From Leptotrichia sp. OH3620_COT-345 (GTDB lineage: Bacteria; Fusobacteriota; Fusobacteriia; Fusobacteriales; Leptotrichiaceae), in the NCBI RefSeq assembly GCF_003932895.1, contig NZ_RQYW01000013.1:1-62599 (forward strand): a stretch of DNA of 62,599 bases. The letters are read 5' to 3'. The notes below the pieces were generated by a model. That model worked only from the letters and a program-made list of their open reading frames with translations. It ran no database searches and had not been told where the DNA came from. This document shows positions 4,857-24,175 of the stretch, piece by piece; position 1 is the stretch's first letter, and every line of letters starts with the position of its first letter. The position numbers and the translations under genes are program-made.

Positions 4857-4872
4857 GTAACAACTTTGTTAC
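4857..4872. promoter_or_regulatory. Candidate operator GTAACAA/TTGTTAC
   Basis: A 16-base palindrome with 7-base arms sits 42 bases before the repressor start codon and next to an A/T-rich stretch (TATGATAAAAT) that could be its -10 region. It matches the GTTAC half-sites at 4735-4762 and 7204-7219, which suggests autoregulation. Confidence 0.45.
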
Positions 4873-4913
4873 TAAAATATGATAAAATACATTTAGAAAC
4901 GGGAGGAAAAAAT

Positions 4914-5324
4914 ATGAGTTTAGGAGAAGTTTTAAAGGAAAAGAGAGAGAGTAAAGGACTTTCATTAAGACAGGTAGAATATAAATTAAAATCCAAAAAC
5001 ATTCAGTACAGTCATACTAATATAAAAAGATTGGAAGATAATAAGTTTGACAAAGTTCCTATAAAAGTTCTTTCAGCATTAGCAGAATTATTTGTTTTAG
5101 ACAAAGTTACCTTATTTAACTTAGCAGGTGCGGCACTTGATGAGACGGATGAGCGGATTTCAAAATTAAATAAACGTGAACGTACACAGTTAGATGATGT
5201 AATGTCCAGTGCAAATCATTTTTTTAATGATGAAAGTATAAACGAGGAGGATAAGAAAAAGCTATACGACAGTTTACAGGAATTATATTTTGATGCAAAA
5301 TCAAAAAATAAAAGAAAAAAGTAG
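4914..5324 (+). CDS. XRE-family phage repressor
   Basis: A 136-residue protein with an N-terminal Cro/C1-type helix-turn-helix (about residues 4-65) and a charged helical tail. It lacks a LexA-like self-cleavage domain. The start at 4914 has GGGAGG at 4901-4906; an ATG at 4866 lies inside the upstream palindrome and is less likely. The next gene, 9 bases later, encodes an ImmA/IrrE protease, and such pairs work as repressor and repressor-cleaving protease in ICEBs1 and many prophages. It is therefore the probable master repressor of the tail cluster, acting at the GTTAC palindromes. Confidence 0.8.
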   Translation: MSLGEVLKEKRESKGLSLRQVEYKLKSKNIQYSHTNIKRLEDNKFDKVPIKVLSALAELFVLDKVTLFNLAGAALDETDERISKLNKRERTQLDDVMSSANHFFNDESINEEDKKKLYDSLQELYFDAKSKNKRKK

Positions 5325-5333
5325 GGATGTTGG

Positions 5334-5762
5334 ATGCGAAAAAAGAAAAATATAAAGCAAAGGGTCAAAAATCTGATTGAAAAATACAATACAAAAAATC
5401 CATATGAATTATGCAGAAAGTTAAACATTTATATAAAGTATATGGACTTGGGAAATATAAAAGGATATTTTAAAAAAGTACTTGGAAATAAATATATAGT
5501 AATTAATGAAAATCTAGATGATTATTCAAAAAAAGTGGTATTGTCTCACGAGTTGGGGCATGGAGTAATGCATTCAAGTAAAGATGTTTTATTAATGAAA
5601 GAAAATTTTTACAGATACACTCCTGAATTAGAAAATGAAGCTAATGAATTTGCAGCGGAACTATTATCCTACGATGCTCAGGAAATAAGTTATAATTTAA
5701 TTGAAAATTGTGATTTGGGACTTGAAGTAATGGAGGAAATAAGAAAATATAAAAGATTTTAA
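5334..5762 (+). CDS. ImmA/IrrE-type metallopeptidase
   Basis: A 142-residue zinc peptidase with HELGH at residues 72-76 and the downstream acidic segment ELENEANEFAAELL (about 95-108) that supplies the third ligand. In related mobile elements (ImmA of ICEBs1) this protein cleaves the neighbouring XRE repressor after a host signal and so induces the element. Gene order and the 9-base spacing behind the repressor support that role here. The SOS-type or cell-density trigger cannot be inferred. Confidence 0.82.
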   Translation: MRKKKNIKQRVKNLIEKYNTKNPYELCRKLNIYIKYMDLGNIKGYFKKVLGNKYIVINENLDDYSKKVVLSHELGHGVMHSSKDVLLMKENFYRYTPELENEANEFAAELLSYDAQEISYNLIENCDLGLEVMEEIRKYKRF

Positions 5763-5957
5763 AGGATAACAAATTACAATAAAAATAAATTATTAAGTAT
5801 TATAATAATGAGAGTTTTTAAAATCTGTGATTTCAAAATGGTTTTATCATGTAATTAGTAAAATAAAAACCTTAAAGTTGAAAATAGAACCAAATTATAA
5901 TTTTACTTTTTAAAACTAAGATATAACAAATTATAAAAAATAAAAGGAGTGATTGAA

Positions 5958-6548
5958 TTGAAAAAGATATTGATGATTTTATCGTTATTGTTTTTAGTTG
6001 TGAGTTGTGGAACTCCGAAAGTTCAGAAAGAGTTTGAAATTGTACTTAAAGCGTTACAAAGCGGAGATGTGGAAAAAATAAAAAAGCTGAACTCTAATTC
6101 GGAATTTATGAATAGTGATGAGGATTCAAAAATATTTTTAAATGGATATAAAAAAATGACTTACAAAATAAAAAGTACTAAAGTTAAAGGAGATATAGCA
6201 ACAATAAATCTGGACTTGAAAGCTCCTGATTTAACAGTATATTTTTCAGAATATGTACAGGAAATTATGGGATTGGCTTTCGCCAATTTCGGAAAAAGTA
6301 ATCAAGAAATAAAAGGTATTCAAGATAAGTTTACTCTAGATTTCTTTGAAAAAAAATTAAACTCGAAAGACTTAAAATACAACGAAGAAAATGTAGATGT
6401 CGTTTTAAAGAAAAATGGAAAAGAATGGGAAGTTGATACTGAAAATGAAAAAAACAAACCGTTTTTTGAAATAATAAGTTTCGGGTTTACTAAAATACTG
6501 GAAAATTTTGGAGAAAATATGATTCAGGATGAAGAAACGGTTAAATAG
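5958..6548 (+). CDS. Lipoprotein of unknown function (DUF5105-like)
   Basis: A 196-residue predicted lipoprotein: a hydrophobic signal ends in LVVSC with Cys17 as the lipidation site. The mature part begins with a helical segment that resembles the start of small secreted lipoproteins (roughly FEIVLKALQSGDVEKI) and continues as alternating strands. I chose the TTG at 5958 because GGAG (5946-5949) is then 8-9 bases away; the GTG at 5949 overlaps the ribosome site. It sits between the repressor pair and the broken antirepressor, and may be a lysogenic-conversion or surface-exclusion gene. Function is unknown. Confidence 0.6.
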   Translation: MKKILMILSLLFLVVSCGTPKVQKEFEIVLKALQSGDVEKIKKLNSNSEFMNSDEDSKIFLNGYKKMTYKIKSTKVKGDIATINLDLKAPDLTVYFSEYVQEIMGLAFANFGKSNQEIKGIQDKFTLDFFEKKLNSKDLKYNEENVDVVLKKNGKEWEVDTENEKNKPFFEIISFGFTKILENFGENMIQDEETVK

Positions 6549-6702
6549 CCTAAGAAAAACTAAAAAACAGTAGTTATGGAATTAGCGAAAAATTTACAGT
6601 TTTAAAAAAGGAAATTTTAAAAAATCAAGTAATATTGATTATATTTATTATGAACTTGATTTAGAAAATAATAGTTTTATGTATTGACTATATTCAAATT
6701 AG

Positions 6703-6813
6703 ATGTTAAGAGTTGATGGTAGCAGATTTCAAATGTTTCCGGACAGTAATCGGGATTTTTTGTCAGTTTTACATTCCATAGAAGGCGAAATAAATTGTAA
6801 AAGTATAAATTAG
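6703..6813 (+). CDS. Small open frame, unknown
   Basis: Thirty-six codons from ATG 6703 to TAG 6811-6813 with a mixed, protein-like composition (several D, F, S, one C). There is no clear ribosome site and the preceding in-frame codons include TAG, so it may be the tail of a decayed gene. Its stop overlaps the left arm of the inverted repeat at 6809-6856. Confidence 0.2.
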   Translation: MLRVDGSRFQMFPDSNRDFLSVLHSIEGEINCKSIN

Positions 6814-6981
6814 GGAACTGAAATAACTAAGAAAAAATTTTATGATGTTCCCTAATGTGGTAAAATTAGAAAATTTAATACTAAATAGCAACAGAAAAAA
6901 ACAGGAAAAATTGAAAATAAACTTAAAATAATAGGAAAAATAAGGGATTAAAGAAAATCTTCTATTTTTTTAAAAAAATAT

Positions 6982-7000
6982 GTTACAAAAAAGTTACAAA
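6982..7000. promoter_or_regulatory. Direct repeat of GTTACAAA, one helical turn apart
   Basis: GTTACAAA occurs at 6982-6989 and 6993-7000, start to start 11 bases. The half-site equals that in the palindromes near the repressor, so this may be another binding site of the XRE repressor or a related factor. Confidence 0.35.
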
Positions 7001-7081
7001 TGTGTTATATTAAATTGAGATGATAAAAATGGAAACAAAATAAAAAATATTATTTACTTAAATAGTTACAGTATAAATGAA

Positions 7082-7186
7082 ATGATAGTAAAATTAGATT
7101 ATAGCAGTCATAGAAAATTGAAAAAAATAATAAGTAAAAATAAGAAAAATAGATGTGAGGAAGTTTTAAGCTTTTTAAAACAATGA
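7082..7186 (+). CDS. Small basic open frame, unknown
   Basis: Thirty-four codons from ATG 7082 to TGA 7184-7186, rich in lysine. No ribosome site is obvious. It could be a small phage regulator or chance. Confidence 0.2.
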   Translation: MIVKLDYSSHRKLKKIISKNKKNRCEEVLSFLKQ

Positions 7187-7203
7187 TTTTTTACACCTTT
7201 AAA

Positions 7204-7219
7204 GTAACTTTTTAGTTAC
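7204..7219. promoter_or_regulatory. Candidate operator GTAAC-N6-GTTAC
   Basis: An inverted pair of GTAAC and GTTAC half-sites lies about 300 bases before the antirepressor remnant. It resembles the palindromes flanking the repressor gene start. Confidence 0.35.
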
Positions 7220-7520
7220 AAAAAATGTTTGTATTAAATAAAATTAAGAAATAATATATTTGTTTAACGTTAAAAAAATATTATTTGAAGAAATTTATTT
7301 AAAATTTGAATTATTAGGAAATTAAAAAATAAGTATTTGTAAGTATTTAATGAAGAATAACTAAAATATCTACTATCCGTAAAAAACTATTGTGTGAGAT
7401 ATTAGGAAAAATCAGATTCATAAAAAATATATTGATGAATAAAAATAAATTTGAAAAATAAAATTGGGAAAATCGAAAAATACAGTTTAAAAAATAATAT
7501 TGTTCAAGAAAGGATTTAAA

Positions 7521-7934
7521 ATGAATGAATTAAAGAATTTTAAAAATGGGAAAATTGAAAAAATGTTTGTCGATTACCAAAAAATCAAAAAACGACTGAC
7601 AGAACAGAAACATAAAGTTAACTTTTATAATGATGTTATGGAAAGTACATTGGTAACGGATGTAGGAACAGTATCAAAATTACTTAATTTTAAAGGAGTA
7701 GGGAGAAATACGTTATTTAAAATTTTGAGAAAAAAGAGACTATTATAACAGAATAATATACCTTATCAGAAATATATAGATAACGGATATTTCAGAGTCG
7801 CTGAAAGTAAATGGAATGACTGCACGACCGGAAACATAAAAATTTCACTCAAAACAGTAGTTTATCAGAAAGGGATCGAACATATTTCGAGATTGTTGAA
7901 AAAACTTGGATATGAAAAAATTGATACAGTATGA
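7521..7934 (+). pseudogene. Phage antirepressor (KilAC domain) split by an in-frame TAA
   Basis: The first half, from ATG 7521 (possible ATG at 7500) to TAA 7746-7748, has the DVGTVSKLLNFKGVGRNTLFKIL pattern of the KilAC antirepressor C-terminal domain (positions about 7665-7735). Past the stop the same frame continues for about 61 codons with PYQKYIDNGYF and KTVVYQKGIEHI, exactly the second half of that domain, ending at TGA 7932-7934. A single nonsense change therefore separates two halves of one domain. The usual N-terminal Rha, BRO or ORF6N domain is missing. Intact homologues bind or relieve the phage repressor; this copy is likely inactive unless the stop is read through. Confidence 0.7.
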
Positions 7935-8083
7935 TAATAAAGTATATTAAAATACAACAGAAATTGTTAAATTTAATAATGAAATATAAAAAAATAGAGA
8001 ATAGAGTAAATTTTCGGAAATATATGATAAAAAATATTGGAAAGGTCAAATGTATAGAGTCTTTTCCGTTTAAAGGAGAATAA
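7931..8083 (+). CDS. Small basic protein coupled to com-like gene
   Basis: A 50-residue lysine-rich frame whose ATG overlaps the antirepressor stop (ATGA at 7931-7934), a hallmark of translational coupling. Its last codons contain the ribosome site AAAGGAG (8073-8079) for the next gene. I do not recognise a family. It could be genuine or a fortuitous frame in a compact phage operon. Confidence 0.4.
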   Translation: MIIKYIKIQQKLLNLIMKYKKIENRVNFRKYMIKNIGKVKCIESFPFKGE

Positions 8084-8086
8084 AAG

Positions 8087-8245
8087 ATGGAAATACAGGA
8101 AATAAGATGTAAATTTTGTAAAAAGAAAAAAATGGAAGTGGAGATAATAGGCGGAAGATTTAACTATAATTTTATATGCCCAAGATGTAAAAATAGAAAT
8201 GTAGGCACAATAATTGATAAAACCGAAAAAAAAGACAATGTATGA
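8087..8245 (+). CDS. Com-like zinc-ribbon protein
   Basis: A 52-residue protein with two CxxC knuckles, CKFC near residues 8-11 and CPRC near 31-34, spaced as in Com of phage Mu and its relatives. Com binds mRNA and switches on translation of the mom DNA-modification gene in Mu; relatives occur in many Mu-like and fusobacterial prophages. AAAGGAG lies 8 bases before the ATG. No mom-like gene is seen in the window, so its target, if any, is unknown. Confidence 0.65.
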   Translation: MEIQEIRCKFCKKKKMEVEIIGGRFNYNFICPRCKNRNVGTIIDKTEKKDNV

Positions 8246-9077
8246 AAAAAATAAATATAAATTTTAAGTTGTTAAATTTTTATTGTATTATTAATTTGTT
8301 ATTTTTAATAAATAGAAATTAAAATAATAAATTATTTAAAGGATTATATTCTTATAAAAAAAGTGATAAATATTAAATTATCAAAAATATAAAATTAAAT
8401 ATTTTGAAACTATAACATATAGGTAAGTATAAGTTAATTATACTTTTTATTCAGAGCATCCCGAGCGGATCTGTTACGTAGTAATACGTAGCGGTTCGCT
8501 TTTTCTTTATTTTCAATATTTGAAAAGTATGAAATAAATTTCGGCTTAAAAGAATATAAGTTTTATAAAAAATTTAAATAATTCTACAGTTATGAAAAAT
8601 AACGGTTAGATTTATAAAAAAATTAGAAAAGTAATATTGAATAATAATTTAAATACGGGACATATCAGATACAGATATTTAATAAAAAAGTAAAATGTCC
8701 AGAAAATTGGAGAGTAGATTATTTCATAAGCTAGAAAATATAAGTTAATGTTTTTATTGTTTATACAAAAATAGTAAAAAATCTGAGATTTATAATTTGA
8801 TATATTTTATGAACTGATACTTTAAGGACGATTAATTTATTAGTAAAACCTAAAAATCGATAAAAATATATTGGAGGTATTATTGGTTTAAGCTGTAAAA
8901 CTTCCATGAGAAAGGAGGCGAAATGATACGAAGTATAATGAAAATACCTTGACGGAAATGAGAATAATATTTTGGTTATTGATTGTTCGGCAACTCTTTT
9001 AACATCAAAATATACTAATGATGTAAAAATGATAAATAAAAACATCACATATTTAAATTTTTAAGTTAGGAGGATTT
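8246..9077. other. 830-bp gene-poor stretch at the expected head-module position
   Basis: No intact gene of size is visible. It contains a strong hairpin terminator (8464-8508). A plus-strand coding-like run of about 38 codons ends at TAA 9062-9064, but its upstream frame is closed by stops, so it reads as the tail of a broken phage gene. Antisense open frames here look like chance. In complete phages of this type the terminase, portal and capsid genes would lie between the regulatory genes and the tail genes. Confidence 0.5.
8464..8508 (+). terminator. Strong intrinsic terminator
   Basis: Arms 8464-8480 and 8485-8500 pair over 16 base pairs with one bulge and G-U pairs, closed by a GTAA loop and followed by TTTTTCTTT. 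It separates the regulatory block from the tail genes, and would need antitermination or a downstream promoter for tail expression. Confidence 0.7.
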
Positions 9078-9236
9078 ATGAAAATAGAAGTTAAAGAACC
9101 GATAACTCTGATTTTATTTCAAACCGGAGAAACAGTAAAGTATGATGAAATAGGAATGTTTGAAATAGAAAATATAGATTTGAGAATGGAAAGGATAATT
9201 GCTCAGAGTAACGGAAAAATTAAAATTTTTGTTTAG
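9078..9236 (+). CDS. Small phage protein, unknown
   Basis: A 52-residue protein with strong ribosome site TTAGGAGG (9066-9073). It has a mixed beta-type composition and no cysteines. It is the first well-translated frame of the tail block. I do not recognise the family; small head-tail or tail accessory proteins occur at this position in related clusters. Confidence 0.5.
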   Translation: MKIEVKEPITLILFQTGETVKYDEIGMFEIENIDLRMERIIAQSNGKIKIFV

Positions 9237-9370
9237 ACGGATTCAGTGATCAGAGTTTAAAATAAGAAAAAGAATGGAAAAATTGAAAAATGAAAAACAG
9301 GAATCAAAATTTTTCAGGATATAAATTATAGTTATCAGTTATATTTTACAGTACTGATAGAAAGGCGGAT

Positions 9371-10285
9371 ATGGAAAAGGAAAATACAATTTTATATTCA
9401 AAGGAAAAAGAATATAAGTTTTTTAAATTAATGGCTGCTGATAATGTTTCAGGAATAATTATGAAAAATTTTAAAGAATATAAAGTAAAGGTCCGTATAA
9501 GTAATCGACTGGATATCTTACAGGAAATAAAATCGGAGAATACACAGATAGTGAAAAAATTTAAAGGAAAGATAAAAATTCCTTTGACGGCAGTTAATAT
9601 TAATAATAATGAAGAAACTATAACGGTAAGTAATGGAGATCTGCTTGAAATGGACGGGAAAAAATACGAAATTATCGACTATTATGAAATAAACGAAGAA
9701 ACAGAACATTACGGTATATTTTACTTAACAGGTTATTTTAAAAATATCGGATTTGACAAGTATAGGACAGAATTGAACAATCTTTTTTATACTTTATTCA
9801 ACAGATTGAATATTGAAGCAGTTATTTATTCAGCATTTTTTCAAAATGAATATTTTAAAAATTGTAACAGATCATTTTTAACTTATGATATTGTCCAAGT
9901 AGGTAAAATGAATGATTTTACAAGTTTTGCCGATGTTTTAGAAAATAAAGATAATTATGAAAGTGAAGTAAGAATAAAAAGAAATTACAGAGTAACGATT
10001 AACTATTATTTAAAGCCCAATGATATTGATCTGGACCTTGTTTTAAGTAAAAACATAATATTTGAACACATATTGAAAAGGACTTCATTCCGTTTTGAGC
10101 ATATAAAAGATTTTGAAATACAGAATTTAGATCTATTATCTGAAAATGAAGTTATAGTAAATGACAAAATTTTAAATAAAAAAGTATATAATTTAGAATT
10201 TAAAGCAGATACAATATATAACTTTAAAAATGATTATATTGAAAGAATAAATTTAACAGGAAAATTAAAAAATAAGGAGGACTAA
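9371..10285 (+). CDS. Tail completion / neck terminator-like protein
   Basis: A 304-residue phage protein. The C-terminal half (about 140-290) has the look of neck or tail-terminator proteins: a helical start, then a segment with a YDIVQVGKMND turn and strand pairs ending in YRVTINYYL. The N-terminal part (about 40-115) resembles a small beta-barrel connector domain around a GDLLEMDGKKYEI loop. AAAGGCGG precedes the ATG. It ends one base before the sheath gene starts, the usual place of tail-completion genes. A fusion of connector and terminator functions is an inference. Confidence 0.5.
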   Translation: MEKENTILYSKEKEYKFFKLMAADNVSGIIMKNFKEYKVKVRISNRLDILQEIKSENTQIVKKFKGKIKIPLTAVNINNNEETITVSNGDLLEMDGKKYEIIDYYEINEETEHYGIFYLTGYFKNIGFDKYRTELNNLFYTLFNRLNIEAVIYSAFFQNEYFKNCNRSFLTYDIVQVGKMNDFTSFADVLENKDNYESEVRIKRNYRVTINYYLKPNDIDLDLVLSKNIIFEHILKRTSFRFEHIKDFEIQNLDLLSENEVIVNDKILNKKVYNLEFKADTIYNFKNDYIERINLTGKLKNKED

Positions 10286-10286
10286 A

Positions 10287-11354
10287 ATGTCAAGAAATGC
10301 AATAGTGAGTATTCAGGCAATAAATGCGGCTTTATCTTTAACAATAAGGGATTTTTCAAGCGTCTTGTTCGTTGTGAAAGGGAAAGCGATTAATGAAAAT
10401 AATTTACCGAAAGCAATAACAAGTGTAGCGGAATTTAAAGAGCTGGGTTATGATGATGATGCGAAGGAAACCGCATTGGTAAAAGATTATTTCGGAGCAA
10501 ATCCAAAACCTGATTACATATGGGTATATGGAGAAAATACATCAGAAGTAACGTATACAAAAATATTGGAAGGGCTGGATGTAAGATTCCGTGGAAAATG
10601 GTTTTATACATTGGCAGCTGTAAGTGAAGAAGGAGAAGTTAAAGAAATTATTGATTTTCTTAAAGGAACATCAGTGAACTATGTAGCTTTGTTGCAAGGA
10701 GCTCAAAACTTTACAACAGAAGTGAATTTAAAAATAGCAAAGGAAAATCCGACTAATTTAGCGTTTTATGTTGCTACGGACAAGAAAGAAGGTCAGGTAA
10801 GTAATTTAGTGGCAACTGTAAAAGATTTCTTTCCAGGTTCGGTTCCTTTTGCTGCAATAAAATTAAACGGATTGACAGGTTCGACATTTAGTGAAAGTGA
10901 AAAACTTAAACTTGTAGGAATTCAAAGAACATCAGATACAGGAGTAAATCTTGTAACAGAAGAAGATCAGATGGTTATTCCTTATTATGGAAAAGCAATG
11001 GACGGAACTACATGGTTTGATTATTCCGTTGCAACTATAGCAATAGATGAGTATATGAGAGTATATATGACAAAGTATATAGTTGAAAAAAATACCTTAG
11101 GAGAAAAAATACCTGCTAATGACTTCGGTAAATCTCTTTTAGTTTCTAAAGGAATTGAAATACTTAAAGAATTTGCGGATAGAGGAATAATTTATAACAA
11201 AGAAGATTTACTTATGAGCGGAGAAAAAGCATTTGAAGTTAAAATAGTATCGCTTAATAACAGAGAAGCTGAAATAGAATATAAATGTTGGTTCCAAGGA
11301 GCAATTATTAAATCTAAAGTAGCTGTAAAATTAAATTCGGAAAAAGGAAATTAG
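10287..11354 (+). CDS. Contractile tail sheath protein
   Basis: A 355-residue sheath subunit. It resembles the DUF3383-like sheath group, with an N-terminal strand-rich arm, a central domain containing a Rossmann-like stretch (roughly 60-190) and a C-terminal arm that interlinks subunits. The ribosome site GGAGG lies just before the ATG. The next gene encodes a tube-like protein, the fixed sheath-tube order of myophages and R-type tailocins. Contraction of this sheath drives the tube into the target cell. Confidence 0.78.
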   Translation: MSRNAIVSIQAINAALSLTIRDFSSVLFVVKGKAINENNLPKAITSVAEFKELGYDDDAKETALVKDYFGANPKPDYIWVYGENTSEVTYTKILEGLDVRFRGKWFYTLAAVSEEGEVKEIIDFLKGTSVNYVALLQGAQNFTTEVNLKIAKENPTNLAFYVATDKKEGQVSNLVATVKDFFPGSVPFAAIKLNGLTGSTFSESEKLKLVGIQRTSDTGVNLVTEEDQMVIPYYGKAMDGTTWFDYSVATIAIDEYMRVYMTKYIVEKNTLGEKIPANDFGKSLLVSKGIEILKEFADRGIIYNKEDLLMSGEKAFEVKIVSLNNREAEIEYKCWFQGAIIKSKVAVKLNSEKGN

Positions 11355-11366
11355 GAGGGAATATAA

Positions 11367-11789
11367 ATGGCTTATTTAAGAAAAGGATATGTAAAAATTA
11401 CTGCTAACGGCAGGGAACTTATAATAGATGAACTTGATGAAGATGCAATAAGTATTGAAGCACTGGGAGATAAAACTACTCGTAGAAGTACGACAAGAGG
11501 TAAGGGGATATATTCAATTATGGGAGATGTTCCATATAAGTTGACATTTACGATACCTTCTACTTCTAAAGCTATGAAAAGAGTTTTATCGTATTTAGAA
11601 TTTTTAAAAAGTAATGACTATCCGTCGTTAAATTTTGAAACACATGAAAAAATTGACGGTGAAGAAGTTATTACTTACTATGAGGATGGAAATGTTATGA
11701 CAGAACTATCTGCAGAAGGAATGTTGACAGCAGATGCCCCTAAAAATACATTTGCAATAGCAGGAACAAGAACGGAAAAGAAAATATAA
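11367..11789 (+). CDS. Tail tube protein
   Basis: A 140-residue protein of the size and beta-rich layout of contractile tail tubes, starting with a short strand that ends in ANGREL and carrying a long loop near residues 40-60. It follows the sheath by 12 bases and has its own GGAGGG ribosome site. It would polymerise into the inner tube around the tape measure. Confidence 0.75.
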   Translation: MAYLRKGYVKITANGRELIIDELDEDAISIEALGDKTTRRSTTRGKGIYSIMGDVPYKLTFTIPSTSKAMKRVLSYLEFLKSNDYPSLNFETHEKIDGEEVITYYEDGNVMTELSAEGMLTADAPKNTFAIAGTRTEKKI

Positions 11790-11807
11790 ATATAAAGGAG
11801 ATGAAAC

Positions 11808-12215
11808 ATGGATAAAAAAAATAACAAAAGCGAGTTTATACAATTGGAAGCGGGAAAAGAACCTTTTGCCAAGTCTTTTAAAGGAGAAAGGAAGTTTTTC
11901 GGATTACCTAATAAAACATATATTCTTTATTTAGAAGGACTGGGAAATGATGGAGAAAAAAGTATTGTATCAATTCAGCTGATTACTCCTCTCGCAAGAA
12001 AGCTGACAGGGTTTATATCCAAAGTTTCAGGTTTGTTAAATGGAGATACTCTTACAATAGGAGACGGACAGGAAATAAATGATCTTATAGATATAACTCA
12101 GGAACTATTTCAGATTTCGAGTACGGAAATAGATAAACTGACATTCGACGGTCTGTTCCATTTAATAGGATTTGCTGCTGAGATTTCAGTGTCTCCCAGT
12201 TTTTCTAAAAAGTGA
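11808..12215 (+). CDS. Tail assembly chaperone, short form (gpG-like)
   Basis: A 135-residue helical protein between tube and tape measure, the position of tail assembly chaperones in nearly all long-tailed phages. AAAGGAG precedes the ATG. The frame ends at TGA 12213-12215 directly after T5 and A5 runs. The continuing frame downstream lacks its own good start, so this is read as the short product of a frameshift pair. It coats the tape measure during assembly and is absent from the finished tail. Confidence 0.7.
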   Translation: MDKKNNKSEFIQLEAGKEPFAKSFKGERKFFGLPNKTYILYLEGLGNDGEKSIVSIQLITPLARKLTGFISKVSGLLNGDTLTIGDGQEINDLIDITQELFQISSTEIDKLTFDGLFHLIGFAAEISVSPSFSKK

Positions 12216-12393
12216 TGGATATATAAATTACAATAAACATTTTTCGGAAATGGATTATAGGAGTTATGCATCACATTTAATAGGGTTTGAGTTCGGCTTA
12301 AACCCTTATGAAATTGAAGACAATTGGAGTGAGTTTCAGATTGCTCAGACAACGGCATTTTTAAGAGAGCATTTGAAAAATAGGTTAAGGTAG
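11808..12393 (+). CDS. Tail assembly chaperone, frameshifted long form (gpGT-like)
   Basis: The second frame (visible from about 12195 to TAG-AGG junction, stop 12391-12393) encodes a segment with YASHLIGFEFGLNPYEIEDN, typical of the T part of these chaperones. Going from the first to the second frame needs a +1 or -2 shift. At TCT AAA AAG TGA the tRNA-Lys could re-pair AAA one base forward, or step back two bases from AAG to AAA while the ribosome waits at TGA. Mu uses a -2 shift at the same gene. An internal TTG at 12172 has its AGGA too close, so independent initiation is unlikely. Confidence 0.6.
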
Positions 12394-12403
12394 GAGTTTT
12401 AAT

Positions 12404-14644
12404 ATGGCGGAAAATCAGAATATAAAGGCAAAAATTGGTTTCGAAGCTGATTTTAAAGAGTTGGAGAGATTGCTCGGCACAGTAAAAAGGACAATAGAAA
12501 AAAGATTGAAAACCGATATCAAAGTTAATGTTGAGCTTAATCCTAAAGGGTATAAAGACATTCATAAGTTAAAAAAAGAAATATCCAAGAAAGTAAAAGT
12601 TCCTGTTCAATTTGAACAAAAGGGAAAAATTCCGAAAATTGTGTCGGATAATTTTATTCAAAAAGCATTCGGAGGAAAGATTAAAAAAGGTATAAAGAAA
12701 ACATCAAAAGTATCTTCTGATTCCGGACAGGAAGATTCAGGAAATGAAAAGCAGGGAAAATTTGAAAAGGTAGGAAAATTTGCAAAGAAAATATCGCAAG
12801 CCGTACCGACTGATTTTACCAAAGAAATACTCAGTATAGGAGGGAAATTTCAGGAATTAAAAACAATGCTGAGTAATTCCCTCGGAGAAGATGCGGAAGC
12901 TTCGGGTTTGATGAACATTATAAAGAAAACTGCAAGAGAAGCCAACCTCGGAATGGGTGAAACAGGATCGGCATTCAATGAACTTATAAATAACGGATTA
13001 AAGCCGACTAAAGAGGAAATGCTTCAATTTAACAATATGGCAAAAGCTCAGAAAAAGGATTTGGGACAATGGATAGGAGCAGTCACGGATGCAGTTAAAG
13101 GAGAAAATGAAGGACTGAAACAATTCGGAGTAACTGCTAAAGATGCAGGAGACTCGTGGATATACACATTTAGCGGAGTATCGACCAAAGTAAAGAAAAA
13201 TGAGCAGGATATATATAATTATATGGCAGGTTTAGGGCGTCTGCCCGGAGTAGTAGGAGCAGCCGAAAAATCATCCGGAGATTTTAACAGTATAATGAAA
13301 AGTATTTCCGATACGATAACAAATATAAAAATAACTTTTTTTGAAAAAATAGAAAAGTATTTATCTCCTGTTTTAAATGTTGTGCAGAATCTTCTGGAAT
13401 CTTTTCAGAAATGGGCGGAAGAAAATTCCGAACTGACGGGTATTATAGGAATGGTTATTGCTGTTTTGGGAGGACTTTCAATGGCGGCATCAGTAATTGC
13501 TCCGATATTAACGGCAATAAGTGTTCCGGTGCTTGTGTTAATAGCAAAAATAGCAATATTAACTGCCATAATAATAGATTTATGGAACGGGCTTACAACA
13601 GGAAACAGTTACATATTTTCAATAATTGACGGATTTCTGGAATGGATTGGAGTAAGTGTATCGGTGCAGGATATTCTGAATGGAATAACGGAAGGTTTCA
13701 ATGGATTAATGATCTTTGTTTCCGAAGAAGTTGTTCCGATACTTTTAGAAGTATGGAATTTTCTGTGTGAAGGAATAATGCTTACCATAGGAACAGTACA
13801 GGAATATATTTCAGTAATTGTAGATATTATTGTAGCATTATTTACCGGAAATATTCCGAGAGCGGCGGAAGGATTTGAACAGCTGAAAAATATGGTTTTA
13901 AATATTTTTGATACTATAATGTCCGCTTCGGCAAGGGCAGTTGCATATATACTAAATCTGTTTGCAGACGGAATAGATAAAATAGGAGATATGTTTTTGA
14001 AATTGCCTTTCGGAATGGGGGATTTAGTAGGAGGTATTGCAAAAGAAGAAGCAAAGCGGGTAAGAGAAAAAAGTAAAAATACTGAAGGTTATGCCGATAA
14101 CTTAGATAATAATAAGGAAAAGAGAAAAAAAGAAATAAGAGGGTATTCTGAAGCAGGAAATACAGGAAAGGAAAGAAAGGAATTTCCAAATAATAAAAAT
14201 GAAAAAGATAAAAAGACGGATCCTTATAAAAATATGAAAAAAAATATCGGCGGTAATTCGGTAAGTAACAGAAGTGCTCCTCCTAAAAAAGATACAAGAA
14301 GTAAAGGAAGAGAAAAAGACGCTAAGGCTAAAGAAGAAAATAAAATAATAGTATCGGCGATAGAAAATTTACAGGATATTCTCAAAAAAACCGGATACGA
14401 TATAACTTCTGAAATAAAAAGAGCAAACTTGTTTGAAGCAAAAAGGACTGCAATACTGGAAAGTCAGAAAAAAATGGGAATTATGGAAATGTTCAGAGAT
14501 ATAAAAGACAGATATATTCAAAACAAGACTACAAATAATCTGGAAATAATACTTAACGGGAATAAAATTTCTGATAACGGGATAAATGAAAATACACGGA
14601 TAAGAGATTTATATCAAATACAAAATGCTAAGAAAGGCGGGTAA
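12404..14644 (+). CDS. Tail tape measure protein
   Basis: A 746-residue protein, the longest of the cluster. It begins with a charged coiled-coil stretch (1-130), has a glycine/alanine-rich TP901-like centre (about 130-300), hydrophobic segments near 345-400 and 450-490, then a highly charged, low-complexity region (540-640) and a helical C-terminus. It sets tail length; at the usual ~1.5 angstrom per residue the tail would be about 110 nm (inference). It lies directly after the frameshifted chaperone, as expected. Confidence 0.8.
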   Translation: MAENQNIKAKIGFEADFKELERLLGTVKRTIEKRLKTDIKVNVELNPKGYKDIHKLKKEISKKVKVPVQFEQKGKIPKIVSDNFIQKAFGGKIKKGIKKTSKVSSDSGQEDSGNEKQGKFEKVGKFAKKISQAVPTDFTKEILSIGGKFQELKTMLSNSLGEDAEASGLMNIIKKTAREANLGMGETGSAFNELINNGLKPTKEEMLQFNNMAKAQKKDLGQWIGAVTDAVKGENEGLKQFGVTAKDAGDSWIYTFSGVSTKVKKNEQDIYNYMAGLGRLPGVVGAAEKSSGDFNSIMKSISDTITNIKITFFEKIEKYLSPVLNVVQNLLESFQKWAEENSELTGIIGMVIAVLGGLSMAASVIAPILTAISVPVLVLIAKIAILTAIIIDLWNGLTTGNSYIFSIIDGFLEWIGVSVSVQDILNGITEGFNGLMIFVSEEVVPILLEVWNFLCEGIMLTIGTVQEYISVIVDIIVALFTGNIPRAAEGFEQLKNMVLNIFDTIMSASARAVAYILNLFADGIDKIGDMFLKLPFGMGDLVGGIAKEEAKRVREKSKNTEGYADNLDNNKEKRKKEIRGYSEAGNTGKERKEFPNNKNEKDKKTDPYKNMKKNIGGNSVSNRSAPPKKDTRSKGREKDAKAKEENKIIVSAIENLQDILKKTGYDITSEIKRANLFEAKRTAILESQKKMGIMEMFRDIKDRYIQNKTTNNLEIILNGNKISDNGINENTRIRDLYQIQNAKKGG

Positions 14645-14645
14645 T

Positions 14646-15143
14646 ATGTTTTTTAAATATGACGGATTTTTTGGAATTTTACCATTTAAATCCATATCAA
14701 ACAATATAAATTTACAAAAAGAAATAACTTCAAGAAAAACCTATTTAGGATATGAGGACAATGATCACCGTTATTTTAAAGCAAAGGAAATAAATCTTAC
14801 AATAGTTTTGGAAGGTAGGCTTAAAAAACTTCATCTTACTGCTTTGGAAAGTATGTGGAAAAATAATGATAAACAGGTATTGATACTTCTTAAGCATAAT
14901 CAAATATTTAGGAATATGGTAATAAAAAATATTTCAAATACTCAGGAATATGATACTGAAAAAGATAATATCATTGAACTGAATGTATCTTTTCAAGAAA
15001 TGAGATATGGAATTCCTGAAGGAAATATTTATGAAGATATAAAGAATATAACAAGTTCAGACGGAATGTTTACACAGGTTGTAGGAAAAGTAAAAGAAAA
15101 GCTGAATACGGTAGTTAATTTATACAGCAGGGCTATAAAGTAG
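14646..15143 (+). CDS. Tail/baseplate-associated protein
   Basis: A 165-residue protein following the tape measure by one base. I chose ATG 14646 because AAGGCGGG (14634-14641 area) is correctly spaced; ATG 14625 would overlap the tape measure. It is strand-rich with a ILPFKSIS start and an E-L-N-V-SFQEM end. In related myophage clusters this slot holds a LysM or DUF6046-type protein linking tape measure and hub. Precise family is uncertain. Confidence 0.5.
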   Translation: MFFKYDGFFGILPFKSISNNINLQKEITSRKTYLGYEDNDHRYFKAKEINLTIVLEGRLKKLHLTALESMWKNNDKQVLILLKHNQIFRNMVIKNISNTQEYDTEKDNIIELNVSFQEMRYGIPEGNIYEDIKNITSSDGMFTQVVGKVKEKLNTVVNLYSRAIK

Positions 15144-15151
15144 GTGTTAGA

Positions 15152-15574
15152 ATGAAAATACAGTATAAAGAAAATGAAATAAAAAATATGATATTAAATA
15201 ATAATTTTGTTGAAATACCTTTTGACACAGAAAATATAAAAAGGAAAACAATAAAAATAGAAGCTATTGTATTTGAAAGAAAAATAAAGTTTGAGCTGAT
15301 GTATATAAACAAAAAATATGATTATCTGTTTGATGATATTGAAAATGTCGTACTTCAAATATTTAATGTGGATAATGAGCTTTTATCCACAGGAAAGCTC
15401 CGGTTAAGACAGGACTTGTTATACACTGTAAAACAAATCACGAATGACTACGATGATCTTGTTATGCTGTTAATTCCTAAAAATAAAGCTATTATGAAAG
15501 ATAAGGCTTTTAAACTTAAAAATTTAGACGGCTATGGCTTCTTTTTGTTCAAAGAGGTAAGAGAAAATGGATAA
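15152..15574 (+). CDS. Phage tail protein of unknown function
   Basis: A 140-residue lysine- and isoleucine-rich protein with alternating strand pattern and no cysteine. It lies 8 bases after its upstream neighbour and overlaps the hub gene by 8 bases, so it is translated as part of the baseplate block. It may be a hub-connector such as those found between tape-measure-linked and gpD-like proteins. No family motif recognised. Confidence 0.5.
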   Translation: MKIQYKENEIKNMILNNNFVEIPFDTENIKRKTIKIEAIVFERKIKFELMYINKKYDYLFDDIENVVLQIFNVDNELLSTGKLRLRQDLLYTVKQITNDYDDLVMLLIPKNKAIMKDKAFKLKNLDGYGFFLFKEVRENG

Positions 15575-16496
15575 ATTCAGATATATTGAAATAAAATTGA
15601 TACTTGATAATAACGAACTTGTTTATAACAATGATAATTTTAATATTGATTTCAGTCTTGAAACTGACAGGAGCAGTCAGTCAAATGTATTGGAACTTAA
15701 TTTGTATAATATAAAAGAAAGAGAAAATGGAATAGATTCACTGGAATATGAATTTATGAAATTGAAACCGCGTATTGAGTTGTATGCAGGGTATAGGGAA
15801 AAAAAAGAAATCAAAGTGAAGGATCTTGTATTTAGCGGACAACTTGCAACAATAAAAAATGATTATGCCGATTTGGACATAAAATATTCCCTTGTATGTT
15901 TTCAAGAGAGGGATATTCTGGTAATGCAGACTTTAAATGTAAGCTATCCTAAGGGAAATAAACCTTCTTTTATTATTAAAGATTTAGTTGAAAAAGTAGG
16001 AAGTAAAGAAGAAGTTAAACTTGGGATTGGGAAAATAGAACCGTTTAAAGATTTACCTTATCAGTCAAATTTTTCAAAGTCAAATACAAGTTTACAAAAA
16101 ATATTTGAAGCTCTTGCAAAAGATACAATGAGTATATTTTATATAGAAAACGGATTACTTTATTTTTTACCTAAACATTCTTTTGTAAAAGAAAAAATAA
16201 AATTAAAACAGATGGATTTACTTGACTTAAAAGCAGATGATAACGGTTATAATGTTAAGCTTGGATTCAGAAATTTCAAAATAAATACTCAGGTATATAT
16301 TGAAGGTCTGGAAAAGGATTTTGTAATAGATAAGATAAAACACAACTGCAACGGAGAAGACGGAGATTTTGTGACAGAACTGAAAATACTGGATATGGAT
16401 ATATTCGGTCAGAATATGCTCAAAGAATTAGAAGAAATTAAGAAAAAATCTGAAGAAAAAGTGAAGGAACCGGAGGAAAAAGAAAATAATAAATAA
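15567..16496 (+). CDS. Baseplate hub protein (gpD / gp27-like)
   Basis: A 309-residue protein with the layout of late control gene D hubs: an N-terminal beta-barrel (about 1-110, with a RIELYAGYRE turn), a central domain with SKSNTSLQKIFEALAKDT (roughly 165-200) and a C-terminal beta-barrel ending in a charged helix. Hubs form the ring that carries the spike. It overlaps the preceding gene by 8 bases and precedes the spike gene by 12. Confidence 0.65.
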   Translation: MDKFRYIEIKLILDNNELVYNNDNFNIDFSLETDRSSQSNVLELNLYNIKERENGIDSLEYEFMKLKPRIELYAGYREKKEIKVKDLVFSGQLATIKNDYADLDIKYSLVCFQERDILVMQTLNVSYPKGNKPSFIIKDLVEKVGSKEEVKLGIGKIEPFKDLPYQSNFSKSNTSLQKIFEALAKDTMSIFYIENGLLYFLPKHSFVKEKIKLKQMDLLDLKADDNGYNVKLGFRNFKINTQVYIEGLEKDFVIDKIKHNCNGEDGDFVTELKILDMDIFGQNMLKELEEIKKKSEEKVKEPEEKENNK

Positions 16497-16508
16497 GGAG
16501 AAAAAATA

Positions 16509-17135
16509 ATGGCATTTTCAGAAATCGAAAAACATAACAGAACACTTATAAATGAAGAATTAAACGATATTCATACTTTATGGATAGGAAAGTTATATGA
16601 TGTTGATAATTCTAAAAGGAAAGCAAGTGTAAAGTTTTTACAGAAAGCAATAAGAACATTAAAAAATGATTTTTTTCAGACTTCTCCCGAGGATATAACG
16701 GATGTTCCTTTATTACCCGTGTTTTCAAGTTTGAATTTTGAAATATATGTTCCATATAATAACGGAGATAAAGTATTGATATGTATTCTTGAAAGACCGT
16801 ATACAGAAGCATTTCATAATGATGAAATACAGGAGCAGCAGTTATTCGGAAGAATGGATATGGGATATTCGATAGTTTTAAAGGCTATACCGAAAAATAT
16901 GTTGTCAGAAGAACAGTCTGAATATGAAAATATAGTTATAAGAAATAATGAAACAAAAGTAGTTATAAAAAACGGAAGTGTAAATATTACAGGAAATACT
17001 ACTGTAAACGGTGAGTTGACAGTAAACGGTAATATGACGGTGAACGGGAAACTGAAAGTGAAGTCAATAGAAACAGATGATATTGAAACAAAAAGCGGAA
17101 TTTCCAAAGGCGGAGTAGAATATATACATCCGTAA
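16509..17135 (+). CDS. Baseplate spike protein (Gp138/gpV-like)
   Basis: A 208-residue membrane-piercing spike. The N-terminal 110 residues resemble the Gp138 OB-fold domain, with a VPYNNGDKVLICILERP strand pair. Residues about 155-190 form repeated TVNG/KLTV units expected to build a triple-stranded beta-helix needle. The chain ends in HP. AAGGAG precedes the ATG. It caps the tube and would be driven through the target's outer membrane. Confidence 0.7.
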   Translation: MAFSEIEKHNRTLINEELNDIHTLWIGKLYDVDNSKRKASVKFLQKAIRTLKNDFFQTSPEDITDVPLLPVFSSLNFEIYVPYNNGDKVLICILERPYTEAFHNDEIQEQQLFGRMDMGYSIVLKAIPKNMLSEEQSEYENIVIRNNETKVVIKNGSVNITGNTTVNGELTVNGNMTVNGKLKVKSIETDDIETKSGISKGGVEYIHP

Positions 17136-17214
17136 AAAATTTAAGAGGACAATGACAGATGAATAATAACTGTGATAGAAATATAAGGAATTACTTAACT
17201 TTTTATATTTTATA

Positions 17215-17229
17215 GTTTACAATGTAAAC
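17215..17229. promoter_or_regulatory. Operator of the antitoxin-toxin cassette
   Basis: A perfect palindrome of GTTTACA and TGTAAAC around one central base overlaps a likely -10 box (TACAAT, 17218-17223) 17 bases after TTAACT. RelB-type antitoxins usually autorepress at such a site. The antitoxin start follows 20 bases later. Confidence 0.55.
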
Positions 17230-17249
17230 ATATAAAGGAGAGTAATATT

Positions 17250-17474
17250 ATGCCGGTAATTTCCATAAGATTTAATGATGAAGAAGAAAGAATAATAAAA
17301 AAAATTATAGAAAACAAAGGCTCTACTGTATCTCAATATACTAAAGGTTTAATATTTGAACAAATAGAAAATGAATATGATTTAGAAATTGTAAAAGAAT
17401 ATTTGAAAGCAAAAGAAGAAGGAATACTTGAGTTAGTATCCTATAAAGAGGCAGTGAAAGAATTAGGATTATAA
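17250..17474 (+). CDS. RelB/DinJ-type antitoxin
   Basis: A 74-residue protein with an N-terminal ribbon-helix-helix (PVISIRFNDEEERII then a helix to about residue 45) and a C-terminal toxin-binding helix, as in the DUF6290/RelB group. AAAGGAG precedes the ATG. Downstream, two bases after the stop, lies the matching RelE toxin gene, which is broken. The cassette has its own operator and terminator and interrupts the baseplate gene order between spike and gp25-like gene, so it is an inserted cargo unit. Confidence 0.75.
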   Translation: MPVISIRFNDEEERIIKKIIENKGSTVSQYTKGLIFEQIENEYDLEIVKEYLKAKEEGILELVSYKEAVKELGL

Positions 17475-17476
17475 TA

Positions 17477-17744
17477 ATGAAAAAATATACGATAAAATTT
17501 GAAAAATCTTTTCTAAAAATATTAAAAAATTAGACAAACAGACTTTACTAATAGTAACCGGCTATATTGATAATAATTTAAAAAATACAGATAATCCGAG
17601 AAGAAAAGGAAAAGCCTTAACAGGGATTTTAAAGGTCTTTGGAGATACAGGATAATAGATTATAGATTGATAGCGGGTATTCAAGATGATGAATTGATTA
17701 TAGTAGCTATTGATTTAGACCATGGAAACAAAATATACAAGTAA
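17477..17744 (+). pseudogene. RelE/ParE-superfamily toxin, two frameshifts
   Basis: Read through two one-base deletions, the sequence gives a full RelE-like toxin: it starts MKKYTIKFEKSF, continues KKLDKQTLLIVTGYI and ends with WRYRIIDYRLIAGI then LDHGNKIYK. The first shift lies near 17515-17530 (in-frame TAG follows at 17531-17533); the second near 17622-17630 (TAA at 17653-17655). The catalytic-region residues WRYR and the H of DHGNK are preserved in the broken reading. The intact antitoxin upstream is thus an orphan, and the ribosome-dependent RNase is presumably not made. Confidence 0.78.
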
Positions 17745-17751
17745 TAATTTT

Positions 17752-17785
17752 AATCACAGTTATTGATTTAGCTGTGATTTTTTAT
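17752..17785 (+). terminator. Terminator of the toxin-antitoxin cassette
   Basis: Arms AATCACAG (17752-17759) and CTGTGATT (17772-17779) enclose a 12-base loop and are followed by a T run. It lies 8 bases after the toxin stop. Confidence 0.65.
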
Positions 17786-17804
17786 TAGTCGACGGAGGCA
17801 TAAA

Positions 17805-18173
17805 ATGTTTAAAATGGAAAATGGAGATTTGAAAATAGTAAATAATGATCTTCAAGTTATTTCAGAAAAAGCAAGAATATTGCAAGAAATAGAAGAAAAG
17901 ATAAAGCTTATAAAAGGAACTTATAATTTAAGGGAAGAATTAGGTATTCCATGGATGGAATATAACGGGAAGCTCAATAGTACTGAAAGGGACAATATAA
18001 TAATCACTTTTATGTATGAAAAGGTTTCCGGATACAAAGGAATAGATGTAAGCAGTATTTTCATAGAAAAAGTGAAAAAAGAAAACAGGGAGGCAAGTTT
18101 CAATATAGAATTTGTCTATTTGGGTGAAAAAGTAAATCAAGAAATAGAGGGAGGTGCATTTAATGGGATTTAA
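17805..18173 (+). CDS. Baseplate wedge protein (gp25/gpW-like)
   Basis: A 122-residue protein with the size and pattern of the gp25/W family: a short N-terminal strand pair, a helix with ARILQEIEEKIKLIKGTY, the loop LREELGIPWMEY and a C-terminal strand with a FNIEFVYLGEK end. It nucleates sheath assembly at the baseplate. GGAGG precedes it, and its end overlaps the J-like gene by 11 bases. Confidence 0.7.
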   Translation: MFKMENGDLKIVNNDLQVISEKARILQEIEEKIKLIKGTYNLREELGIPWMEYNGKLNSTERDNIIITFMYEKVSGYKGIDVSSIFIEKVKKENREASFNIEFVYLGEKVNQEIEGGAFNGI

Positions 18174-19320
18174 GACAGATAAAAACGGACTTATATTTCC
18201 TGTATTTACAGATTTTAAAGATGAAATGGAAAAGGAAGGGAAAATACAGTTTGGAGATGATTTTACCATTGATCCTGAAACATCTTTAGGTCAATTTTTG
18301 GAAGTTATTTCATATATGCTTGAAAATACAAGTAAACAGTTACAGAATGTGTATTTCTTATTCTGGCTGTTTAATAAAAATGGTGCTTTGCTGTCAGAAT
18401 ATGCGAGCAATTACGGTATAGAAAGAATACAGGGGAAATATTCTTACGGAAATCTTAATATTGAAGGAACTCCCGGGCACATAGTTACAAAAGGGTTCCA
18501 GGTGCGTTCTAAAAAGGGGCTTTTATACAAAACCGTTTCAAATGTTCTTATTAATTCGGCAGGAAAGGCAAAAGTTCAGATAAAAGCTCTGGAGTTCGGA
18601 GAAGAATATAACACAGAAGAAAATACTATTTTAGAAAAAGCGACAGGAGATGAAAATGTAACTCGTATATACAACTCCGAAGCTATTACAGGAGGAACTT
18701 TTTTAGAAAGCGATGAAGATTTAAGAGAGAGGATACTGAATTTATCTCATTCAAAGGGAGGTTCAGATATAAATGGGATAAAAGCTGCATTACTTAAACT
18801 TTCTCAAGTGGAGGATTGTGACATAAAGGAAAATTATACAGATACGAGAAATGAAACTTTAAAATTAGAACCGGGACATATAAGAATAATAGTTAAAGGT
18901 TTAATTGATGAAGAGGTAGCTTATTCAGTTTTAAATACCATTTCTCCCGGAATTGTAACTGACGGAAATGTGGAAATGAGAGTAGTAACGGATTCCAATC
19001 AGAGCAGGATAATAAAATTTAAGCAGGCAGTAAAAGTAGAATATGCTGTAAGGGTCAGAAATATAAGGAATATATCCGAACAGAATAGAATAACAAGAGA
19101 AGAAATAATAAACAATATATTTAAGGAAGCAGGAAATTTTAAACTCGGGCAATATGTAAATTATGAAAAAATTCAAGCAGCAGTATATAAAATATCAAAT
19201 CAATTGGAAGCTGATGTAGAAATAAAAAAAATAAACGGAAACTGGGGAAAATCGGATTTAGATATTGAACATGATGAATACAGCTTTTTAAGTATGAATA
19301 ATATAGAGGTGATACTGTAA
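18163..19320 (+). CDS. Baseplate wedge protein J-like
   Basis: A 385-residue wedge component of the gpJ/gp47 family. It begins with the conserved opening of a short GF(K)TDKNG segment and a helix through LEVISYMLENTS, has a beta-domain with GTPGHIVTKGFQV (about 95-120), the SDEDLRERIL signature (near 185) and a C-terminal domain with EPGHIRIIVKG. I chose ATG 18163 because GGGAGG (18149-18154) is correctly spaced; a GTG at 18154 overlaps it. It ends with a TAATG overlap with the next gene. Confidence 0.75.
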   Translation: MGFKTDKNGLIFPVFTDFKDEMEKEGKIQFGDDFTIDPETSLGQFLEVISYMLENTSKQLQNVYFLFWLFNKNGALLSEYASNYGIERIQGKYSYGNLNIEGTPGHIVTKGFQVRSKKGLLYKTVSNVLINSAGKAKVQIKALEFGEEYNTEENTILEKATGDENVTRIYNSEAITGGTFLESDEDLRERILNLSHSKGGSDINGIKAALLKLSQVEDCDIKENYTDTRNETLKLEPGHIRIIVKGLIDEEVAYSVLNTISPGIVTDGNVEMRVVTDSNQSRIIKFKQAVKVEYAVRVRNIRNISEQNRITREEIINNIFKEAGNFKLGQYVNYEKIQAAVYKISNQLEADVEIKKINGNWGKSDLDIEHDEYSFLSMNNIEVIL

Positions 19321-19919
19321 TGAAAGCTGATAATTTTTTGAGCTTATGCGGGAATATAATTGATAGGAAAGAGCCGAGTAATAAGAAAATATTTAATATG
19401 ATTTCCAAAGGTTTTGAATTATACAACAAATACTATGAAAAAACTCTATTTTCAGATGTTATAGACAGATTAATTGAAAATGAGCTTGATTTATTCGGTT
19501 CCCAGTTTAATCTCTACAGAAGCGGGAGAACGGATGAAGAATACAAAAAATATCTGAAATTATCTTTTTTATTGAGATTGGGAAGAACAGATTTTAATTT
19601 TATAGTAAATGCCGTTTCCATTTTCTTTGATATTGAAAAGCAGAAAATAAAAATATTTGACCATAATTCAGATAAAGATATTAAGGCGAGACATATTAAA
19701 TTAAGAATATTGCAGAAGGTGGATATGCAGGAAATAATTCCTTTTTTAATAAAAATAAAAGCGGCAGGGATAATAGTCGATTGTTGGGAAATGTTGGACG
19801 GAAATTTTTTGGTCGACTGTAAAGGTGTAAGAAAGAAATATATAGTTAAAAGTGATGTTAATTATGAATATGACAGACATGAATATAATCTTGATGAAAT
19901 GTTAGAACTTAATGATTAA
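19320..19919 (+). CDS. Baseplate/tail protein I-like
   Basis: A 199-residue protein that follows the J-like gene with a one-base stop-start overlap, the P2 J-I order. It is helical in the first 90 residues with a YRSGRTDEEYKKYLKL segment typical of DUF2612/gpI-type proteins (an entry point for fibres), then strands. It would form the tip of the wedge and anchor the fibre. Confidence 0.62.
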   Translation: MKADNFLSLCGNIIDRKEPSNKKIFNMISKGFELYNKYYEKTLFSDVIDRLIENELDLFGSQFNLYRSGRTDEEYKKYLKLSFLLRLGRTDFNFIVNAVSIFFDIEKQKIKIFDHNSDKDIKARHIKLRILQKVDMQEIIPFLIKIKAAGIIVDCWEMLDGNFLVDCKGVRKKYIVKSDVNYEYDRHEYNLDEMLELND

Positions 19920-19933
19920 AGGAGGTTAAGAAG

Positions 19934-21010: not shown

Positions 21011-21029
21011 TAAAAATTAGGAGGTAAAA

Positions 21030-21734: not shown

Positions 21735-21745
21735 CCAGCCTTATT
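21720..21745. terminator. Bidirectional hairpin at the convergent gene ends
   Basis: Arms AATAAGGCTG (21720-21729) and CAGCCTTATT (21736-21745) enclose a 6-base loop containing both stop codons of the convergent fibre-assembly and acyltransferase genes. It could terminate transcripts from both sides. Confidence 0.6.
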
Positions 21746-22738: not shown

Positions 22739-22793
22739 AAAAACTCCTTAAAATTTTTTATTATTATAGCATAAAAAAGGAAAGGGAACAAAA

Positions 22794-23707: not shown

Positions 23708-23844
23708 GATCTGAATATTTTAAAAATAAAAAATTTGAATTTAAAAAATAGAGTTTCAGATTATACTAAAAAATGATAAAAAAATAAAAGAGATAGAAAA
23801 TATTTAAAATATTTTAAAAATAAAAAACAAAGGAATGATTTAAT

Positions 23845-24162: not shown

Positions 24163-24175
24163 GGAGGTTAGAATC

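What the first reader, a model, noticed from the sequence alone, without database searches (positions are those of the whole stretch)
12195..12260. Programmed frameshift (+1 or -2) in the tail assembly chaperone
The first chaperone frame stops at TGA 12213-12215, right after T5 and A5 runs, and the second frame continues the protein with no plausible start of its own. Reaching it needs +1 or -2. The Lys codons AAA-AAG before TGA allow slippage either one base forward or two bases back. Mu uses -2 at this gene, most phages -1, so direction is informative.
Basis: partly seen in the sequence, partly recalled or inferred. Interest (0 to 1): 0.6.

Follow-up and report, generated by a model that had tools for sequence, protein, structure and literature searches.

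The report
Proline-codon +1 frameshift in tail chaperone
In a headless phage-tail gene cluster of a Leptotrichiaceae bacterium, and in related prophages, ribosomes very probably slip one base forward on a rare proline codon (CCC) to make the long form of the tail-building helper protein; the bacterium reads that codon with a single ill-fitting tRNA, which explains why the site is slippery.

Summary
ORF1 (11808-12215) stops at TGA 12213-12215 after T5 (12200-12204) and A5 (12207-12211). The downstream frame (to 12393) has no credible start and is reached by +1 or -2. It is under coding selection: 9 of 11 substitutions to a 95%-identical homologue fall in third positions of that frame. The same break recurs in independent assemblies, so it is not a sequencing indel.

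The proposed slip site is wrong. In one homologue (L007) frame 0 stops before the A-run, so AAA-AAG cannot be used there. The only shared site is CCC_AGN (CCC 12195-12197, fifteen bases before the TGA): tRNA-Pro slips +1 from CCC to CCA. AAAAGT is conserved because the new frame encodes [IL]KS[DN]G.

An in-frame CCC, rare here (about 1.6 per 1000 codons), lies in the overlap of 12 of 13 +1-type chaperone loci surveyed in Fusobacteriota, across five ORF1 groups. It is absent from five -1-type loci. Only tRNA-Pro(UGG) was found in ten host genomes.

Best explanation: programmed +1 frameshifting by peptidyl-tRNA-Pro(UGG), as at Listeria phage CCC sites, but with a sense A-site codon and no visible stimulator. 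The cluster has no head genes and looks like a tailocin. Bench proof is lacking.

The parts
11808..12215 (+). ORF1: short form of the tail assembly chaperone (135 aa, G-like), stop TGA 12213-12215
   Evidence: position between tube-like gene and tape measure; homologues in G001 (95%), G002 (47%), L007 (45%)
12195..12200 (+). Slip site CCC_AGT: P-site CCC (12195-12197) re-pairs +1 as CCA (12196-12198); next codon read is GTT 12199
   Evidence: Only slip-competent site shared by window, G001, G002 and L007; in-frame CCC in 12 of 13 +1-type Fusobacteriota loci
12207..12215 (+). Conserved because the +1 frame encodes L-K-S-D-G
   Evidence: L007 frame 0 ends before it; frame-1 alignment [IL]KS[DN]G
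12199..12393 (+). T-like second frame of the long form (64 residues after the shift, stop TAG 12391-12393); fused protein of 194 aa
   Evidence: homologous to second frames of G017 and of phage D6E
12404..14644 (+). Tape measure protein (746 aa)
   Evidence: PHROGs tape-measure matches, best 2.8e-27
11367..11789 (+). Probable tail tube protein (140 aa)
   Evidence: Between sheath and chaperone; weak PHROG match 0.0012
10287..11354 (+). Tail sheath protein
   Evidence: phrog_205, 3.4e-22

Best explanation
Programmed +1 ribosomal frameshifting. Ribosomes translating ORF1 reach the rare codon CCC (12195-12197). The only proline tRNA found in the host, anticodon UGG, pairs poorly with CCC. During or after translocation it can slide one base forward onto CCA, which it pairs with perfectly. 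Translation then continues at GTT 12199 and yields a minority 194-residue fusion (...EISVSP|VFLKSDGYINY...). Ribosomes that do not slip stop at TGA 12213 and give the 135-residue short form. By analogy with lambda gpG/gpGT, the two forms act in a set ratio to load tube subunits on the tape measure protein. Shown here: conserved anatomy, conserved CCC_A, coding of both frames, tRNA gene content. Inferred: the slippage itself, its efficiency, and the function.
For: Same +1 relation in window, G001, G002/L006 and L007. L007 has CCC_AGC as its only slip-competent codon, with no -2 option. Distant loci keep it: G017a GAT CCC AGC, G017b/c and G023b AAT CCC AGA, G025/G024 AAT CCC TTC, G048 ACT CCC TTT, G090 ATC CCC TCT. 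Chance of an in-frame CCC in the overlap, multiplied over five sequence-unrelated ORF1 groups, is about 4e-10, and five -1-type loci have none (the groups may share ancestry). CCC is 52 of 720 proline codons in these loci. Ten hosts show tRNA-Pro(UGG) only; the full tRNA set of complete G002 contains no GGG isoacceptor. The second frame shows coding constraint. Second frames of G017b/c and G090 contain no ATG. Literature: tRNA-Pro(UGG) is naturally prone to +1 shifts on CCC because pairing with CCC is weak (PMC4519876); Listeria phages use +1 at CCC (PMC5009743).
Against: No protein or reporter data. No conserved downstream structure (z-scores between about -1.6 and +1.0) and no clear Shine-Dalgarno-like stimulator, so what raises the efficiency is unknown. 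One Fusobacteriota locus (G071) and phage D6E have TTT_C instead of CCC. In G048 and G090 other slip codons are also possible. Neither frame has a Pfam chaperone match, and the ORF1 structure model is poor (pLDDT 48), so the chaperone identity rests on gene order.
Confidence: 0.86

Rival explanations
1. Slippage on AAA-AAG before TGA, either +1 at AAA_A or -2 from AAG to AAA.
For: AAAAAGT(G/A)A is present in window, G001 and G002, and both re-pairings are possible there. Mu is known to use -2 at this gene (PMC5009743).
Against: L007 stops in frame 0 before this run and has no slip option there. G017b/c, G023b and G025 lack the motif. The conserved run is explained by frame-1 coding of KS[DN]G, and frame-1 residues before it are conserved too.
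Confidence: 0.05
2. The second frame is translated on its own by re-initiation or translational coupling, not by frameshifting.
For: A Met codon is conserved at the position of window 12250 in the four nearest homologues, close after the stop.
Against: No Shine-Dalgarno there. Conserved frame-1 residues and mostly synonymous changes begin immediately after the stop and before that Met. Second frames in G017b/c and G090 have no ATG.
Confidence: 0.05
3. Slip on TTT in the T5 run (TTT_TCT, +1).
For: TTT_T is slip-competent in the window and G001; TTT_C is the only candidate in G071 and D6E.
Against: G002 and L007 have no TTT in the overlap, so it cannot be the shared site.
Confidence: 0.02
4. Sequencing or assembly indel, or a decayed pseudogene.
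For: A headless cluster could be a relic.
Against: Same break in at least four separate assemblies, including a complete genome, with purifying selection on both frames.
Confidence: 0.01

Closest known systems
Lambda-type G/GT tail assembly chaperone frameshift (-1 in lambda, -2 in Mu, +1 in some phages; review PMC5009743)
   Same: Gene between tube and tape measure; short form plus frameshifted long form; second frame without its own start.
   Different: +1 instead of -1; single-tRNA slip on CCC instead of a tandem slippery heptamer; no Pfam or PHROG chaperone match for ORF1.
Listeria phages PSA, A118 and A500: +1 at CCC_UGA (tsh), and PSA cps at CCC_UCC (PMC5009743)
   Same: +1 slip of tRNA-Pro on a rare CCC in a low-GC host.
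   Different: Different genes (tail shaft protein, capsid); there the A-site holds a stop codon (tsh) or a pseudoknot follows (cps). Here the A-site codon is sense (AGN or TTN) and no structure is evident.
HSTV-2 archaeal myovirus chaperone, very likely +1 (PMC5009743)
   Same: +1 access to the second chaperone frame in a contractile-tail virus.
   Different: Archaeal host; its slip site was not compared here.
Deep-sea thermophilic phage D6E (NC_019544)
   Same: Second frame homologous to this one (E 1.8e-6 with L007) and reached by +1.
   Different: Only slip candidate is TTT_C, not CCC; the frames lie in an unannotated gap of the record.

Membership tests
G/GT-type tail assembly chaperone with programmed frameshift | Two overlapping frames between the tube gene and the tape measure gene | tested here: met
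   same order in G002, L007 and G017
G/GT-type tail assembly chaperone with programmed frameshift | Second frame coding and without its own start | tested here: met
G/GT-type tail assembly chaperone with programmed frameshift | Sequence or fold match to a known chaperone family | tested here: inconclusive
   No Pfam/PHROG match for ORF1; low-confidence model; second frame homologous to that of D6E, itself unannotated
G/GT-type tail assembly chaperone with programmed frameshift | Both products made in a set ratio | not testable with these tools
   Needs proteomics or a reporter
+1 frameshifting at proline CCC (Listeria phage type) | In-frame CCC in the overlap as the conserved slip codon | tested here: met
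+1 frameshifting at proline CCC (Listeria phage type) | Stop codon in the A-site, or a 3' pseudoknot | tested here: not met
   A-site codons are AGT, AGA, AGC, TTC, TTT, TCT; no consistent downstream nested structure (pseudoknots not modelled)
+1 frameshifting at proline CCC (Listeria phage type) | CCC rare and read by tRNA-Pro(UGG) | tested here: met
   52 of 720 proline codons; only UGG found in ten hosts
Mu-type -2 frameshift | -2 re-pairing possible at a conserved site | tested here: not met
   No -2 candidate in L007
R-type tailocin (headless contractile tail cluster) | Sheath, tube, tape measure, baseplate and lysis genes present; terminase, portal and capsid absent | tested here: met
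   the related G002 element does carry large ORFs in head-module positions
R-type tailocin (headless contractile tail cluster) | Kills related bacteria | not testable with these tools
   No experiment

The most novel reading that the evidence does not exclude
Fusobacteriota contractile phages and tailocins share a lineage-wide +1 recoding signal that consists essentially of one codon, CCC before a sense codon. It would work because these hosts lack tRNA-Pro(GGG), so ordinary decoding by tRNA-Pro(UGG), rather than a stop codon or RNA structure, sets the chaperone ratio.
Probability: 0.5. Interest if true: 0.6.

Novelty: new variant of a known kind. Interest (0 to 1): 0.5.

Why it matters
Direction and site of the tail-chaperone frameshift differ between phages, and the reason is unclear. 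Here comparison alone fixes the direction (+1) and one codon, corrects an attractive but wrong A-run site, and links the site to the host's tRNA set. That makes a clean test possible: add tRNA-Pro(GGG) and the long form should fall. It also adds a +1 signal with a sense A-site codon, a class that annotation tools often miss, and shows it kept in what looks like a headless tailocin.

Tried and rejected
AAA-AAG (+1 or -2): excluded by L007. TTT: absent from the G002 and L007 overlaps. Independent start: excluded by the lack of ATG in G017b/c and G090 and by constraint right after the stop. Downstream RNA structure: nothing consistent. Homologues in the phages collection by DNA or by ORF1: none. 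First genome-contig scan with the ORF1 profile: nothing. The U34-modifying CmoB family was not found in the host, so the wobble modification is unknown. Papers on Fusobacterium phage chaperone frameshifts: none found.

Full report
What is there. Frame 0 of ORF1 runs from ATG 11808 to TGA 12213-12215. Its end reads TCT CCC AGT TTT TCT AAA AAG TGA, with T5 at 12200-12204 and A5 at 12207-12211. The frame reached by +1 or -2 is open from 12169 to TAG 12391-12393; the frame reached by -1 closes at once. Upstream lie a sheath gene (phrog_205, 3.4e-22) and a probable tube gene, downstream a tape measure gene. The layout is that of a tail-assembly chaperone pair.

Is the second frame real? Against a 95%-identical homologue (G001), 11 substitutions lie between the stop and the end of the second frame. 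Nine are at its third codon positions; changed codons are 9 synonymous to 2 non-synonymous, against 0:10 and 0:11 in the other frames. There is no substitution between CCC and the TGA. The same break appears in G001, in the complete genome G002 (also held as viral contig L006) and in viral contig L007, so it is not a sequencing error.

Where is the slip? All four need +1 or -2. G002 ends GAT AAA AAG TAA, like the window. L007 reads AAT CCC AGC AGT GAA TCT TAA AAG TAA: frame 0 stops before the A-run. Base by base it aligns with G002 without a gap, so this is substitution, not an indel. Listing every codon in the overlaps that can re-pair after +1 or -2 leaves exactly one site in L007, CCC_AGC at +1, and no -2 site. 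CCC_AGN is also present in the window (12195-12200), G001 and G002. Fused proteins made by reading CCCA as Pro align as P-V-F-L-K-S-D-G / P-E-V-E-I-K-S-N-G / P-A-V-N-L-K-S-N-G. V, [LI], K, S and G are kept in frame 1, so the new frame is in use before the A-run, and the A-run is conserved for its coding.

Wider survey. Sheath searches over 98 Fusobacteriota genomes gave further contractile-tail loci. The distant G017a locus (about 27-30% sheath identity; ORF1 without detectable similarity; second frame E about 1e-8 to 1e-10) has GAT CCC AGC GAA GCT TAA. A second ORF1 group has AAT CCC AGA (G017b, G017c, G023b) or AAT CCC TTC (G025, and G024, whose copy is broken elsewhere). G048 has ACT CCC TTT and G090 ATC CCC TCT, though both also have other possible slip codons. 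G071 and phage D6E have TTT_C instead. CCC is 52 of 720 proline codons in these loci. The chance of finding it in the overlap is 0.4 to 4% per locus; multiplied over five groups it is about 4e-10, and five -1-type loci contain none. The groups may share deep ancestry, so this number is a guide and not a p-value.

Mechanism. The window genome shows one tRNA-Pro, anticodon UGG, among 36 tRNA genes, but tRNA-Asn is missing from that list, so the assembly is incomplete. The complete G002 genome also has only UGG among 43, and a similarity search finds only UGG in eight further hosts. E. coli tRNA-Pro(UGG) pairs weakly with CCC and shifts forward readily (PMC4519876). A +1 step puts it on CCA, a perfect match. 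The long form would be ...EISVSP|VFLKSDGYINY..., 194 residues. No consistent nested downstream structure was found, and the A-site codon is sense, so the stimulator, if any, is unknown. The slip, its efficiency and the chaperone function are inferred.

Known or new. Use of +1, -1 or -2 in tail genes of different phages, and +1 at CCC_UGA or CCC_UCC in Listeria phages, are described (PMC5009743). This case shares the slipping tRNA but differs in gene, lineage and A-site codon. I class it as a new variant of a known kind.

Context. From the repressor-like gene at about 4866 to about 24730 the window carries regulators, tail, baseplate, fibre and endolysin genes, but the family scans and ORF list showed no terminase, portal, capsid or integrase; sulfatase and amino acid permease genes flank it. 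The G002 relative has large ORFs in head-module positions upstream of its tail genes (not scanned against families). The window cluster is therefore probably a tailocin, and it has kept the frameshift.

Noticed in passing
window 4866-24730: Regulator, antirepressor, tail, baseplate, fibre and endolysin genes without terminase, portal, capsid or integrase, between sulfatase and amino acid permease genes: probably an R-type tailocin. The related element in G002 (L005) has additional large ORFs upstream of its tail genes.
   Followed up: partly
L133 (G000:C11:6500-11700): A second contractile-tail locus in the same genome whose chaperone pair needs -1 in an A/G-rich overlap without CCC: opposite shift directions in one genome.
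   Followed up: partly
L123 7433-7889 (phage D6E, NC_019544): Unannotated chaperone pair between tube and tape measure, reached by +1 with TTT_C as the only slip candidate.
   Followed up: partly
L135 (G024:C1:1416900-1422600): Chaperone ORF1 and second frame are each interrupted elsewhere, with several ORFs between tube and chaperone: a decayed or rearranged copy.
   Followed up: no
L088 (G002:C1:1998150-1998500): tRNA gene next to tRNA-Ile(GAT) for which ARAGORN gives a two-base anticodon 'gc' and no amino acid; perhaps a damaged second tRNA-Ala(TGC).
   Followed up: no
G000 whole genome: No match to the CmoB family (PF08003), so the usual cmo5U34 route for tRNA-Pro(UGG) seems absent; the wobble modification in this host is unknown.
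   Followed up: partly
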